From Catenulisporales bacterium (lineage in GTDB: Bacteria > Actinomycetota > Actinomycetes > Streptomycetales > Catenulisporaceae): a DNA stretch of 60,799 bases. How positions within the stretch are numbered: position 1 is the stretch's first letter; every line of letters starts with the position of its first letter. Where the stretch lies: positions 1 to 60,799 of the forward strand of contig JAEKKI010000148.1 in the NCBI GenBank assembly GCA_019510485.1, read 5' to 3'. The notes under the pieces were generated by a model. It ran no database searches. It was not told the DNA's origin and worked only from the letters and a program-made list of their open reading frames with translations. Shown one piece after another: positions 45,246-51,132 of this stretch. A program made the position numbers and the translations under genes.

Positions 45246-48200
45246 CTACTTCACGGTGTAGCTGTACGGGATCCCCGTCAGCTCGTCACCGACGCCGATC
45301 AGCGCGTTGAAGGTGTCGACGTAGACCACGCCGCTCACTTTGTCTCCGCTCTTGCCGGCCGGCGTGAAGGTGACGGTGAGCGTGCCGGTCTGGCCAGGTG
45401 CGATCGTCACCGGCTTCAGCGCCGGGGCGCTCAGGTCGACACCGCTCAGCCACAGGTCGCCTGTGGAGGCCACCGCGCTGCGGTCGAACGCCAGCGTGGT
45501 GACGCTCTCGGACTCCGTCGCGCTGCCGCTGACCGTGCCGTTCGTCGGCCCGATCGGAGTCGGGTCCTGGGCCCAGATGCCCGGGGTCACGAACGGCGAG
45601 TCCAGCGTGGCCTCAGCGGTCAGGCCGTGCGAGACACCGTAGATCTCGGGCTGGCCGAACGGCGAGGAGGCCGCGAAGTCCGCCGGGATCGTCGAGGACT
45701 GCGTTCCCCGCAGCTCCGTGGTGTGCGACGGGACCTGGAACGACGGCTGTGCTCCGGTGGTCGCGAACGGCAGGCTCACCGTCGCGCCCAGCGGCGCCAG
45801 CGCCGGCAGGTCGTAGTCCGTGCTGGAGTCCAGGCGCGGGTCGGCGAACAGGGTCAGCGGGGCCGCGCCGGTGTTCTTCACCGTCACCGTCGCGGTCACC
45901 GGCGTGCCCGCGGCGACCTTGCCCTTGGGCAGGCCCGAGGCCTTGGCCTCGACGGCGTTGTAGCGCAGTTTGCCGTGGAACGCGTCGGCCAGGTTGCCGG
46001 CCGGGAGCGACGGGGACATGTCGTCCAGGACCAGCGTCCAGCGGCCGGCCGCCGGGGCGTTGACGTATCCGGTCAGTGACGGCACCAGGCCCAGGTTGCC
46101 CTGTGCGTCCGTGGCGACGTCACTGCTCAGCGAGAGGACCTGGTGGTCCGGGGACTCCAGGAACGCCGAGACCTCGTGGGTGCCGGTGAACGTCACGTCC
46201 ATCGCCAGGTTCTTCTTGCCCTTGGGGACGTCGAAGAAGTACGACTCGGTCTGCGACGGGGAACTGCCGCGGCCGTTGCCGCCGGTGAGCGCGCCGGAGA
46301 AGGCGCCGCCGTCGGTGCCGGTGGAGATCAGCGTCCGCTTGGTCACCGGCAGCGTGGTGGTCTGACGGAACGGGGTGTCGAACTCCAGCGCCGCCGAGGC
46401 GTCGCCGGCAGCGGCGTCGAGGGTCTGCTTCACGGTGAACTTCTGCGACTGCCCCGGCTTCAGCGTGGCACTCGCCGGGCTCACCGAGCCGACGCTCTTG
46501 TATTTGGTCGCCACGAAGTCGTAGTTCACGTCACCCTTGAAACCGGTCGCGTTGGCGTTGGCGTAGAAGTACGCGGTCCAGGTGCCGGCCGCCGGATGCG
46601 CCTGGTCGACGCGGGCGAAGTTGGTCAGCCCCTGCGGGCTGTTCCAGTTCTCGTATTCGCCGTTCGGGCCGACCAGGACCAGGCGGAGCAGGGTGCTGGT
46701 ACCACCGCAGGCGCACGCGGCCGAGCCGGTCAGGTGGTCGGCGCCGGCCGGCACGGTGAACGTGGTGCTGAACCAGTGCCGCTTCAGGCCGGGGGTGCCG
46801 AGGGTGTAGCCCTCGTAGAACCACGGGCTGTTCGGGTCGGTGAAGTCCACCGCCTTGGTGCCCTTGACGTCGCCGACCACGGTGTCCAGCTCGCGTACGT
46901 GGGCTGAGACGTTCTGCGTGTTCGGGCTCGTGTTCGTCAGCGTGACGGTGGCGGACTGCGTCGTGCCGCCCTTGCCGGACATGACGATCTGGGTGTCGCC
47001 CGAGGCGGTGGCGGCCAGCAGGCCGTCGCCCTGCGGCGCCGGGGTGCCGTTGTCGTCCTTGACGGACATCGCCATGCGGACCGCGCGGTAGGTGTCCATC
47101 TCGCCGGAGCCCTGCTGGCTGGCCGGCAGTCCGAGGTCGCGCGCGGAGGAGGTGAGGATCTGCTTCACCAGCGCCGGCGAGGGCCGGACTCCGTTGTGAG
47201 TGTTCTTATACGCCTCGATGACCAGGGCGGCGCCGCCGGACACCAGGGGCGCGGACATGCTGGTGCCGCCGAAGTCCTCGACCTGCGCCGGGTTGCCGTT
47301 GAAGTCCACGCAGGCGCTGAACCGGGCCAGCGGGCTGCACAGCGCCCAGCCGCCCTGGCCGGGTGCCGACAGGTCCGGGACGCGGCCCAGGGCGTTGACC
47401 CCGGCCGAGGACAGCGTGGCGGTGTTGTCCGAGGCCCAGCCGCCGGCCAGGTTCCGGGCTCCGCCGGTGCCGATCTGCGCCTGGTCCCGGAAGGTGGTGG
47501 TGGCCGCGACGCTGATCACATTCGGGTCGACCGACGGCTGGCCCTGGGTGTTGGTGACGCCGCCGTCGCCGGTGGAGGTGACGACCGTGACGCCGGCCGC
47601 CACGGCCGCGTCGTCGGCCAGGCTGGTGGCGTCCAGGCCCTGGGTGGGCTGCGCGTTGCTGCCCAGCGACTCGTTGATGACGTCGACGTTGGCCACGTTC
47701 ACCGCGTAGTCGACGGCCTGCACGACGGTGGAGTCGAAGACCAGGTCGGCCGCGCCGAAGACGTTCAGGCCGACCAGCGAGGCGCCGGGGGCCACGCCGC
47801 GCACGGTGATGGTGCAGCCGGGCGGCAGCGGGTGGTGGGGCGTGACGTACTTGGACAGGTCGTAGACCTGGCGGCCCTGCGCCGCGATGTCGCTGGCGTC
47901 GCCGAACGCCTCGCCGCCGGACTCGTCGCCGTTCGGGTCGGTGCCGGAGAAGTCCTGGTAGTCGCTGAAGACCGGGGTGCCGTCGGCGCGGATGAAGTCG
48001 GGGTTGTCGATGTCCAGCCCGTCGGCGATCCAGGCGACCTTCACGCCCTTGCCGTCGACCAGGTTCTGCGCCTGCGGCCGGTTCTTGTCGAGGAAGGCGG
48101 TGTTCGTGGTCTGCAACGCCTCCGGCTCCAGCAGCGGCTTGCCGGGATCGCTGGGGCAGGTGCCGGGGATGACTTTGTCCGGCGGGGTCTGGCCGTCGGC

Positions 48201-48665
48201 GCCGGTGGCGGCGTCGGCGGTCTCCCGGATGGCGGCCTTCTGCGCGGCGGTGAGCTTGTTCACCACGTGCTGCTGGTCGGCGACGACCGCGGCGACGTTC
48301 GAGTCCTGACGCAGGTGCGCGGCCTCGGCGTCGGTCATCTTGGCCGCGAAGCCGTTGATCACCGAGAACTTCTTGATGTCCTGCGCGCCGGCCGCCTGCG
48401 CCCCGCTGACCAGTGGGGCTTGGTCATGGTCCGCGGTCGCCTTGCGCTGGGACTTGGCGGTCTTGGCGCTCAACTCCGGGTGCTGATTCTTCAGCAGGAC
48501 GATCACGGGGTGCTTGGCGCCGGTGGACAGGGCGGCCAGTTGCTGGGCGGTGGTCGGTCGTGCCGGTCCGGTGGCGGCCTGGGCCATGGCGGCGGTCGTG
48601 CCGGCCCCCAACCCCAACGCCGTTACCGCGACGACCGCTATGCGGTGCCTTCGGGCAAGGTGCAT
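45246..48665 (-). CDS. Secreted subtilase-fold peptidase with sedolisin-like active-site residues
   Basis: A 1,139-residue exported protein. The signal peptide is residues 1-31 and an inhibitor-like propeptide spans about 50-135. The catalytic domain is about 200-490 and carries GGTSMSAPLVSG (Ser469). The classical Asp is replaced (VAWIADGLD) and no HGTH motif exists. Instead there are Glu252 and Asp256 in GGEAFGDAS, and Asp367 in VVTSTGDGG where subtilases have the oxyanion Asn. This is the Glu-Asp-Asp-Ser pattern of sedolisins. The last 650 residues are beta-rich extracellular domains. The ATG at 48663-48665 follows GGGAGAAAGG. Confidence 0.85.
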   Translation of the reverse strand: MHLARRHRIAVVAVTALGLGAGTTAAMAQAATGPARPTTAQQLAALSTGAKHPVIVLLKNQHPELSAKTAKSQRKATADHDQAPLVSGAQAAGAQDIKKFSVINGFAAKMTDAEAAHLRQDSNVAAVVADQQHVVNKLTAAQKAAIRETADAATGADGQTPPDKVIPGTCPSDPGKPLLEPEALQTTNTAFLDKNRPQAQNLVDGKGVKVAWIADGLDIDNPDFIRADGTPVFSDYQDFSGTDPNGDESGGEAFGDASDIAAQGRQVYDLSKYVTPHHPLPPGCTITVRGVAPGASLVGLNVFGAADLVFDSTVVQAVDYAVNVANVDVINESLGSNAQPTQGLDATSLADDAAVAAGVTVVTSTGDGGVTNTQGQPSVDPNVISVAATTTFRDQAQIGTGGARNLAGGWASDNTATLSSAGVNALGRVPDLSAPGQGGWALCSPLARFSACVDFNGNPAQVEDFGGTSMSAPLVSGGAALVIEAYKNTHNGVRPSPALVKQILTSSARDLGLPASQQGSGEMDTYRAVRMAMSVKDDNGTPAPQGDGLLAATASGDTQIVMSGKGGTTQSATVTLTNTSPNTQNVSAHVRELDTVVGDVKGTKAVDFTDPNSPWFYEGYTLGTPGLKRHWFSTTFTVPAGADHLTGSAACACGGTSTLLRLVLVGPNGEYENWNSPQGLTNFARVDQAHPAAGTWTAYFYANANATGFKGDVNYDFVATKYKSVGSVSPASATLKPGQSQKFTVKQTLDAAAGDASAALEFDTPFRQTTTLPVTKRTLISTGTDGGAFSGALTGGNGRGSSPSQTESYFFDVPKGKKNLAMDVTFTGTHEVSAFLESPDHQVLSLSSDVATDAQGNLGLVPSLTGYVNAPAAGRWTLVLDDMSPSLPAGNLADAFHGKLRYNAVEAKASGLPKGKVAAGTPVTATVTVKNTGAAPLTLFADPRLDSSTDYDLPALAPLGATVSLPFATTGAQPSFQVPSHTTELRGTQSSTIPADFAASSPFGQPEIYGVSHGLTAEATLDSPFVTPGIWAQDPTPIGPTNGTVSGSATESESVTTLAFDRSAVASTGDLWLSGVDLSAPALKPVTIAPGQTGTLTVTFTPAGKSGDKVSGVVYVDTFNALIGVGDELTGIPYSYTVK

Positions 48666-49417: not shown

Positions 49418-51055
49418 CTATTGCGTGCAGCGGGTCCCGTCCGCCGGCAGCGTCCCGGAGACCAGGTACGCCTGCATCGCCGACAGCGCGCACTGGTTGT
49501 CGCTGGTGAACGCGGCGTGGCCGGTGCCGACCCGGGTCAGCAGCCGGGCGTTCGCGAAGCCCTTGGCCAGGTTCACAGCGTTCTGATACGGCGTGGCCGG
49601 GTCGTCGGTGGTGCCCACCACCAGGATCGGGTCCGAGCCCTGGGCCTTGATCTCGTGCGGCTTCTCCGGGGTCTGGAACGGCCAGTTCTCGCACATCGGC
49701 TGGGCCAGGTCGTCCTTGGTGAGGTCGGCGGCCAGGACCGGCGCGCCGGCCTTGAGCTCGGTGTAGGCCTTGTCGACCGCGTCCGGGCTGGGCGCCGGGG
49801 TGGTGAAGTCGGCGCAGCGCACGGCGATCAGGCCGTCCTGCTCGGTGCTGTAGTGGCCCTTGTCGTCGCGGCCGTTGTACTGGTCGGCGCCGGCCAGCAG
49901 CATCGAGCCGTCGCCGTTCTTCATCGCCCTGGTCAGCGCCGTGCGCAGGTACTGCCACAAGTTGGAGCCGACATCGCCGTACAGGCCGATGATGACGCCG
50001 GTCTCGCCCAGGTTCTGATCCAGCTTGCGCTTCGGGTCACGGGTCGGCAGTGGATGGTCGCGCAGGCCTTCCATGAACGTGCCGATCTGCTGCGCGGCCG
50101 CCTTGCCGTCACCGGACAGCGGGCACTCGGAGGCGTGGTTGGCGACGCAGTCGGCGGCGAACTTCTCCAACGACTGCTCGAAGCCGACCTGCTGCTGGAC
50201 CTCGGCCTCCAACTGGTCGGCGTTCGGATCCACGGCGCCGTCCAAGACCAGGCGGCCCACCTTGTCCGGGAACTGCTCGGCGTAGACCGAGCCGATGTAG
50301 GTGCCGTAGGAGATGCCCAGGTAGTTCAGCTTCTTGTCGCCGAGGACCTGGCGCATCAGGTCCATGTCCTTGGCGACGTTCTTGGAGCCGACGAACGGCA
50401 GCAGGTCGCCGGAGTTCTTCTTACAGGCCGCGGCCAGGTCCTTGCTGTCCTTCTCGGCCTTGGCCTTGCGGGCGGCCGGGTCCTTCGGCGGGTCCTGTGC
50501 GTTCAGGGCGTCCAGGGTCTTGTCGTCCAGGCAGCGGATGGGCTCGCTGCGGCCCAGGCCCCTGGGGTCGAAGCCGACGATGTCGAAGTGCGCGTGCAGG
50601 GCGCCGTCGAACTTCTGCTTCGCCTCCTCGACGAAGTCCACGCCGGAGGCGCCGGGCCCGCCGGGATTGGTCAGCAGCGAGCCGACTTTGCTCGCCGCGT
50701 CGGCGGCCGGCCACTTCACCATGGCGACCTTGACGTACTTACCCGCGGGCTGGCTGTAGTCCAGTGGCACGTCGATGCTGCCGCACTGGAAGGGGCTCAG
50801 GTCCAGGGTGGGGTCGTCGGCCGGTTCGGTGGTGCAGGTGCCCCAGGTGATCTGCTGCGCGTTGAAGGCGTCCAGGGAGGGGTACTTGGCGCTGGGGAGC
50901 GGGGTCGCGGTCGTTCCGCCGCTGCTTGTCCCTGGCGATGCGCTGCTTTTAGGTCCGGTGACGCCGTCGGACGTGCAACCGGCCAGCAGGGCTCCGCCGA
51001 GCACCATCGCGACAACGGATATGGACCTGCTACAGCGCGCCCCGTATGTCTTCAT
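49418..51055 (-). CDS. Lipoprotein alpha/beta hydrolase (tripeptidyl aminopeptidase-like)
   Basis: A 545-residue protein starting MKTYGARCSRSISVVAMVLG, followed by lipobox LLAGC, so it is probably a membrane-anchored lipoprotein. The alpha/beta-hydrolase core has LLTNPGGPGASGVDF, nucleophile elbow GISYGT and a C-terminal TAP-like domain (CENWPFQTPEKP; ILVVGTTDDPATPYQNAVN; GTGHAAF with the catalytic His). Relatives remove tripeptides from secreted proteins or peptides. Starts upstream of the ATG at 51053-51055 are possible but would spoil the signal sequence. Confidence 0.85.
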   Translation of the reverse strand: MKTYGARCSRSISVVAMVLGGALLAGCTSDGVTGPKSSASPGTSSGGTTATPLPSAKYPSLDAFNAQQITWGTCTTEPADDPTLDLSPFQCGSIDVPLDYSQPAGKYVKVAMVKWPAADAASKVGSLLTNPGGPGASGVDFVEEAKQKFDGALHAHFDIVGFDPRGLGRSEPIRCLDDKTLDALNAQDPPKDPAARKAKAEKDSKDLAAACKKNSGDLLPFVGSKNVAKDMDLMRQVLGDKKLNYLGISYGTYIGSVYAEQFPDKVGRLVLDGAVDPNADQLEAEVQQQVGFEQSLEKFAADCVANHASECPLSGDGKAAAQQIGTFMEGLRDHPLPTRDPKRKLDQNLGETGVIIGLYGDVGSNLWQYLRTALTRAMKNGDGSMLLAGADQYNGRDDKGHYSTEQDGLIAVRCADFTTPAPSPDAVDKAYTELKAGAPVLAADLTKDDLAQPMCENWPFQTPEKPHEIKAQGSDPILVVGTTDDPATPYQNAVNLAKGFANARLLTRVGTGHAAFTSDNQCALSAMQAYLVSGTLPADGTRCTQ

Positions 51056-51132
51056 GTGGTCATGTGTATCACTTCGGCCTCTATCTAGAATCACGATGTG
51101 GACGCCTTCCAGAAACACTTAGGCCAGGGCAG

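What the first reader, a model, noticed from the sequence alone, without database searches (positions are those of the whole stretch)
47259..47915. Subtilase-fold secreted peptidase with sedolisin-type catalytic residues
In the 1,139-residue protein the Asp and His signatures of family S8 are absent (IADGLD instead of DTG; no HGTH). Glu252-x3-Asp256 occupies the place of the His motif, and Asp367 in STGDGG replaces the oxyanion Asn; Ser469 remains in GTSMSAP. This is the Glu/Asp/Asp/Ser arrangement of S53 sedolisins on a protein that otherwise looks like an S8 enzyme with an inhibitor-type propeptide. It may be an intermediate S8/S53 group or a peptidase adapted to acidic pH.
Basis: partly seen in the sequence, partly recalled or inferred. 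Interest (0 to 1): 0.62.

Follow-up and report, generated by a model that had tools for sequence, protein, structure and literature searches.

The report
Subtilisin-like protease with sedolisin-type active site
A secreted soil-bacterium protease is built like an ordinary subtilisin but carries, conserved in all 28 relatives examined, the acid-working catalytic residues of the sister family (sedolisins), making it a natural hybrid that could show how one enzyme chemistry turns into the other.

Summary
The minus-strand gene 48665-45246 (1139 aa) encodes a secreted protein with an I9 propeptide, a PF00082 catalytic domain and a long C-terminal extension. Against 57 ordinary S8 subtilases, Glu252 falls on catalytic His (57/57 His), Ala214 on catalytic Asp (57/57 Asp), Asp367 on oxyanion Asn (57/57 Asn) and Ser469 on Ser. 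Asp256, one helical turn after Glu252, falls on a Val. This is the published sedolisin (S53) layout. In 28 homologues (37-87% identity) Glu252, Asp256, Asp367 and Ser469 are invariant wherever covered; Asp215 is not. The only invariant His, His490, lies 21 residues beyond Ser469, so degeneration or a hidden Asp/His pair is unlikely. The scaffold is S8-like: S8 propeptide, no Pro-kumamolisin domain, S8-only top profile and structure matches. The family occurs in all 10 genus (Catenulispora) genomes searched and sparsely elsewhere in Actinomycetota. A tree with catalytic columns masked puts it between S8 and S53, but AU tests leave one origin versus convergence open. Most likely it is a secreted serine-carboxyl endopeptidase active at acid pH.

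The parts
45246..48665 (-). Gene for the 1139-aa secreted serine-carboxyl peptidase (stop codon included); a GGAG-type ribosome-binding site lies upstream of the ATG
48570..48665 (-). Signal peptide region, aa 1-32 (RRHR positive start, hydrophobic stretch, AMAQA / A-x-A-type end)
   Evidence: read from the sequence; no signal-peptide predictor was available
48273..48503 (-). Inhibitor_I9 (S8-type) propeptide, aa 55-131
47112..48053 (-). Peptidase_S8 catalytic domain by Pfam, aa 205-518
   Evidence: PF00082, 95.5 bits, cutoff 21.8
48018..48029 (-). I-A-D-G, aa 213-216: Ala214 replaces catalytic Asp32 of S8; Asp215 lies on Thr33 and is not conserved
47898..47912 (-). E252-A-F-G-D256: Glu base in the place of His64 and Asp one helical turn later (the S53 BaseAcid pentapeptide)
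47667..47675 (-). N331-E332-S333, the N-x-S segment next to the active site; Glu332 in 27/28 members against Met/Leu/Ile in S8
47565..47576 (-). S-T-G-D367: oxyanion Asp in place of S8 Asn155, as in S53 SSGD/AAGD
47259..47270 (-). G-G-T-S469: nucleophile Ser; GGTS is the S53 form (S8 mostly SGTS)
45249..47045 (-). C-terminal extension, aa 541-1139, Ig/ASH/Fn3-like beta segments by weak Pfam matches
   Evidence: weak

Best explanation
The gene encodes a secreted endopeptidase of clan SB with an S8 (subtilisin-like) scaffold and an I9 propeptide that works by sedolisin (S53) serine-carboxyl chemistry. Ser469 is the nucleophile. Glu252, at the place of His64, is the general base/acid and is hydrogen-bonded to Asp256 one turn along the same helix, which takes over from the lost Asp32 (Ala214 leaves the space). 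Asp367 replaces the oxyanion Asn and, as in sedolisins, can act as proton donor to the tetrahedral intermediate. Because these carboxyls must be protonated or share protons, the enzyme should be active at acid pH (about 3-6) and weak at alkaline pH. The I9 domain should be an intramolecular chaperone and inhibitor removed on maturation, and the C-terminal beta domains may bind substrate or the cell surface. Shown here: residue identities, their correspondence to S8 and S53 positions, invariance across the family, S8-like domain architecture and a compatible predicted fold. Inferred: catalytic activity, pH optimum, propeptide function, C-terminal role and exact side-chain geometry.
For: Pfam: PF00082 95.5 bits and I9 31.3 bits; no Pro-kuma. 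Against 57 S8 sequences: D32->A, H64->E, V68->D, N155->D with Ser kept. Published S53 cores: 1GA6 IT34 / E80WDLD84 / NVS / SSGD170 / TS287 and kumamolysin IE32 / E78VELD82 / SIS / AAGD164 / TS278 (PMC11593635); the window has IA214 / E252AFGD256 / NES / STGD367 / TS469. Invariance of E252, D256, D367, S469 in all members covering them, down to 37% identity. The only invariant His is His490, 21 residues after Ser469; no other His is conserved. In the motif screen of further PF00082-type loci, E-x3-D in place of the His motif was seen in the family rows and not in ordinary S8 rows. Model with pTM 0.83: Glu252 and Asp256 are residues 85 and 89 of helix 84-94, and Ser469 is residue 302 at the start of helix 301-322, the subtilisin arrangement. 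Structure matches to S8 at Z 32-34. Catalytic-domain pI 4.25, close to S53 (mean 4.49) and below S8. Five S53-type genes in the same genome carry E-x3-D / SGD or TGD / GGTS motifs. An actinomycete S53 enzyme with this triad, E40, is active at pH 3-6 (PMC6739405).
Against: No activity was measured. One paralogous Catenulispora group keeps the four residues but changes Gly366 to Tyr and Ser333 to Glu, which may not be active. Low pI is weak evidence, because S8 domains of the same genome are also fairly acidic (4.5-5.2).
Confidence: 0.82

Rival explanations
1. Pseudoprotease: an S8 protein that lost His and Asp and now serves as a binding or sensing protein, like CspC/CspA germination pseudoproteases.
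For: Two of the three S8 catalytic residues are gone. Weak NCBIfam matches include the Csp models. One paralogous group has altered oxyanion-side residues.
Against: The replacements are specific and invariant in the homologues down to 37% identity and reproduce all four S53 catalytic positions including the oxyanion Asp; the nucleophile Ser, Thr468 and the I9 propeptide are kept. Loss of function would let these drift.
Confidence: 0.1
2. A true S53 sedolisin that lost its kumamolisin-type propeptide and gained an S8-type one.
For: Same catalytic residues and GGTS. The masked tree groups the family with S53 at 94/62 support.
Against: PF00082 matches the family at about 97-112 bits, from position 1 or 61, against about 20-53 bits and mostly from about position 70 in S53s of the same genomes. 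The PDB profile search shows only S8 in the best 60. The segment between the catalytic helix and the GVAP motif and the C-terminal end are S8-like rather than S53-like.
Confidence: 0.06
3. An S8-type Asp/His mechanism survives through alternative residues, for example Asp215 as catalytic acid and another His as base.
For: Asp215 is one residue from the S8 Asp position.
Against: Position 215 is D, E, A or V across the family and no His near the active site is conserved; His490 is the only invariant His and lies past the Ser helix.
Confidence: 0.02

Closest known systems
Sedolisins / serine-carboxyl peptidases, MEROPS S53 (sedolisin 1GA6, kumamolysin 1GT9, TPP1, actinomycete E40)
   Same: Glu-x3-Asp base/acid pair on one helix, oxyanion Asp, Ser in GGTS, loss of the S8 Asp32 role, predicted acid activity
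   Different: No Pro-kumamolisin propeptide (PF09286), S8-type I9 propeptide instead; S8-like sequence profile, inter-motif segments and C-terminal end; 600-residue C-terminal extension
Subtilases, MEROPS S8 (subtilisin BPN', Vpr, C5a peptidase, intracellular serine protease 4zoq)
   Same: PF00082 domain over its full length, I9 propeptide, GTSMSAP nucleophile motif, predicted subtilisin fold (Z 32-34)
   Different: Catalytic His, Asp and oxyanion Asn all replaced, by Glu, Ala (+Asp one turn after Glu) and Asp
CDD group 'Peptidases_S53_like' (cd05562), recalled from memory and not testable here
   Same: By its name, an S53-like group set apart from classical S53 inside the S8/S53 superfamily; it may already contain this family
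   Different: Not checked: CDD is not available and the library held no paper naming it

Membership tests
S8 subtilases | Catalytic Asp in D-[TS]-G | tested here: not met
   Ala214 at that column; D in 57/57 S8 rows, never in the family
S8 subtilases | Catalytic His in H-G-T-H | tested here: not met
   Glu252 at that column; H in 57/57 S8 rows, E in all family rows that cover it
S8 subtilases | Oxyanion Asn | tested here: not met
   Asp367; N in 57/57 S8 rows
S8 subtilases | Nucleophile Ser in GTS-[MQ]-[AS] | tested here: met
   Ser469 in GTSMSAP
S8 subtilases | PF00082 domain with I9 propeptide | tested here: met
   95.5 and 31.3 bits, both over cutoff. PF00082 also matches S53 weakly
S8 subtilases | Subtilisin fold closer to S8 than to S53 | tested here: inconclusive
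   All listed structure matches are S8, Z 32-34, but the model's alignment was mostly S8 and absence of S53 from the list excludes nothing
S53 sedolisins | Glu-x3-Asp base/acid pair at the start of the catalytic helix | tested here: met
   E252AFGD256, invariant in all covering members; motif table in PMC11593635
S53 sedolisins | Oxyanion Asp in [SA]-[STA]-G-D | tested here: met
   STGD367
S53 sedolisins | Nucleophile Ser in GGTS | tested here: met
   GGTS469; GGTS in 27 of 28 rows covering it and 9/9 S53
S53 sedolisins | Pro-kumamolisin propeptide PF09286 | tested here: not met
   No PF09286 match in the protein or at this place in a genome scan that found three elsewhere. Some S53-type genes lack a recognised one too (L029, L030)
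S53 sedolisins | S53 C-terminal calcium site | tested here: inconclusive
   By eye the C-terminal end is S8-like (QGSGEMDTYRAV) and unlike S53 DVTTGNN...GWD of L029; not superposed
S53 sedolisins | Activity at acid pH | not testable with these tools
   Needs enzyme assay
Csp-type S8 pseudoproteases | Catalytic residues degenerate and variable | tested here: not met
   The four positions are invariant across the family

The most novel reading that the evidence does not exclude
The family is a surviving intermediate lineage: sister to S53, having acquired Glu/Asp/Asp/Ser chemistry once in a common ancestor while still keeping the S8 scaffold and I9 propeptide, so that the S8-to-S53 transition can be read from living proteins.
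Probability: 0.35. Interest if true: 0.75.

Novelty: new variant of a known kind. Interest (0 to 1): 0.58.

Why it matters
S8 and S53 share a fold but use different bases and pH ranges, and how one became the other is not settled. A conserved clade with S8 architecture and S53 catalytic residues gives a direct natural test, either as a transitional form or as a second, independent invention of the same carboxyl chemistry. Such proteins are at risk of being named plain S8 family peptidases (the generic PF00082 and I9 models are what match), which would miss their chemistry. Acid-active proteases of this type are also of practical interest, as with the gluten-degrading S53 enzyme E40 (PMC6739405).

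Tried and rejected
First AlphaFold2 model from eight family rows failed (pLDDT 42) and was not used. Viral contigs gave no family member with the family's most conserved stretches; they were then used as a source of ordinary S8 rows. An untargeted MAFFT alignment mis-set the S53 catalytic helix because S53 lacks the inter-motif hairpin; it was redone in segments anchored on the E/H position. The anchor assumes that S53 Glu and S8 His correspond, which is published (PMC6278154). AU tests: holding the family with the L059/L166/L169 S8 group is not rejected (p 0.175); holding S53 with S8_L171 is not rejected (p 0.364); two more tests did not finish. Paper searches found no description of this family. 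S53 structures did not appear among the listed structure matches; that is no evidence against kinship. PADLOC matches (IetS, E about 0.01) are generic S8 similarity and were dropped.

Full report
The gene. The minus-strand ORF starting at ATG 48665 and ending with the stop at 45246 encodes 1139 aa; a GGAG-type ribosome-binding site lies upstream. The protein has a signal-peptide-like start (by eye), an Inhibitor_I9 propeptide at 55-131 and a Peptidase_S8 domain at 205-518, then about 600 residues with only weak Ig/ASH/Fn3-like matches. The window is contig C206 of an incomplete genome (77% complete). The closest named relatives are Catenulispora (78-80% identity), and all 10 genomes of its genus have the gene.

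Residues. Four cysteines, 170, 284, 443 and 452, are also conserved and may form two disulfides.

Correspondence to S8. I aligned the window protein and six relatives with 57 ordinary S8 subtilases recovered from viral contigs. Column by column: catalytic Asp is D in 57/57 S8 and Ala214 here; catalytic His is H in 57/57 and Glu252 here; the residue four after His is Val/Met in S8 and Asp256 here; oxyanion Asn is N in 57/57 and Asp367 here; Ser is common. An independent profile alignment to solved subtilisins also put Ala214 on Asp32.

Correspondence to S53. Denesyuk et al. 2024 (PMC11593635) tabulate the catalytic core of serine-carboxyl proteinases: the Asp segment shrinks to a dipeptide (IT in sedolisin, IE in kumamolysin), and base and acid lie in one helical pentapeptide (EWDLD, EVELD). 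The N/S-x-S segment stays, the oxyanion residue is Asp (SSGD, AAGD) and the nucleophile is TS. The window protein reads IA / EAFGD / NES / STGD / TS. The genome also holds three Pro-kumamolisin sedolisins and two more S53-type genes, with E-x3-D, SGD or TGD and GGTS, and seven PF00082 proteins of S8-like profile counting this one.

Conservation. Family members were collected from public genomes. They form a discrete set: members score from 277 bits (a fragment) to over 900 with the family profile, while the next S8 proteins score about 70 or less. In 28 homologues E252, D256, D367, T468 and S469 are invariant wherever covered, and position 214 is never Asp. Members range from 37 to 87% identity to the window protein. 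Position 215 varies and no active-site His is conserved; the one invariant His, 490, lies 21 residues after Ser469. Invariance of exactly the four S53 positions argues for selected catalytic function and against a pseudoprotease. Glu332, between Asn331 and Ser333, is Glu in 27/28 rows and hydrophobic in S8; its role is unknown.

Distribution. At a strict threshold the family occurs in 8 of 297 genomes drawn from the class and 3 of 396 from the phylum, the window's own genome counted in both. Named hosts are Catenulispora, Solihabitans, Solirubrobacter, a peat Acidimicrobiaceae MAG and a Streptantibioticus megaplasmid. Other phyla were not searched in depth.

Fold. A model from the mixed alignment reached pTM 0.83 and mean pLDDT 74. 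Glu252 and Asp256 are residues 85 and 89 in helix 84-94, and Ser469 is residue 302 at the start of helix 301-322. Foldseek and VIA-align match it to S8 subtilisins; in the VIA-align list Z is 32-34 with rmsd 2.2-3.8 A. Because most alignment rows were S8, this confirms compatibility with the subtilisin fold rather than deciding S8 against S53.

Evolution. A maximum-likelihood tree with the catalytic columns removed makes the family one group, S53 another and S8 a third, with the family and S53 on the same side of S8: S8 separated at 98/93 with 24 S8 rows and at 94/62 with 54. AU tests do not reject alternatives. One shared origin of the Glu/Asp/Asp chemistry and convergence are both open.

Mechanism and setting. 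The inferred mechanism is serine-carboxyl catalysis at acid pH, by established knowledge of sedolisins. The catalytic-domain pI is 4.25 and that of the propeptide region 9.5; the family mean of 4.25 is near that of S53 (4.49). Catenulispora is known as an acid-soil genus (my own knowledge), and an actinomycete S53 enzyme from pH 4.2 soil, E40, has the same triad type and works at pH 3-6 (PMC6739405). Next to the gene in the genus lies a TAP-like secreted peptidase, also present beside it in relatives, consistent with extracellular protein degradation but not proof of it.

Verdict. The protein works like an S53 sedolisin by its residues but cannot be filed as S53 (Pro-kumamolisin propeptide test not met, S8-like profile) nor as S8 (three defining residues not met). 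It is a clan SB variant combining the two. It may already be set apart in CDD as an S53-like group (from memory, untested). No paper describing it was found in the open-access library.

Noticed in passing
L042, L043, L044, L045, L046: A second Catenulispora paralogue group keeps Glu/Asp/Asp/Ser but has Gly366->Tyr (SYDAG), Ser333->Glu (NEEAG) and IAAE at the Asp site: possibly altered specificity or an inactive branch.
   Followed up: partly
window 47670-47672 (Glu332): Near-invariant Glu between Asn331 and Ser333, where S8 has Met/Leu/Ile; S53 of the same genome often have Asn there. Could be a further proton-relay acid.
   Followed up: partly
window 49421-51079, minus strand: Upstream TAP-like alpha/beta-hydrolase peptidase (PF08386), syntenic in Catenulispora L002-L004.
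   Followed up: partly
L160, L161 (genome G003, same class): S53-like proteins with a weak Pro-kuma match and VVFAFDGFD at the Asp site, resembling the window family's VAFFADGID locally; candidates for odd S53 branches.
   Followed up: no
genome G659 (same genus): About 16 weak PF00082 matches with S53-type profile ranges, suggesting a large sedolisin expansion in this genus.
   Followed up: no
L021: An S8-type protein of the own genome with DTG and HGT but GAD at the oxyanion and GTG at the Ser site: likely a pseudoprotease.
   Followed up: no
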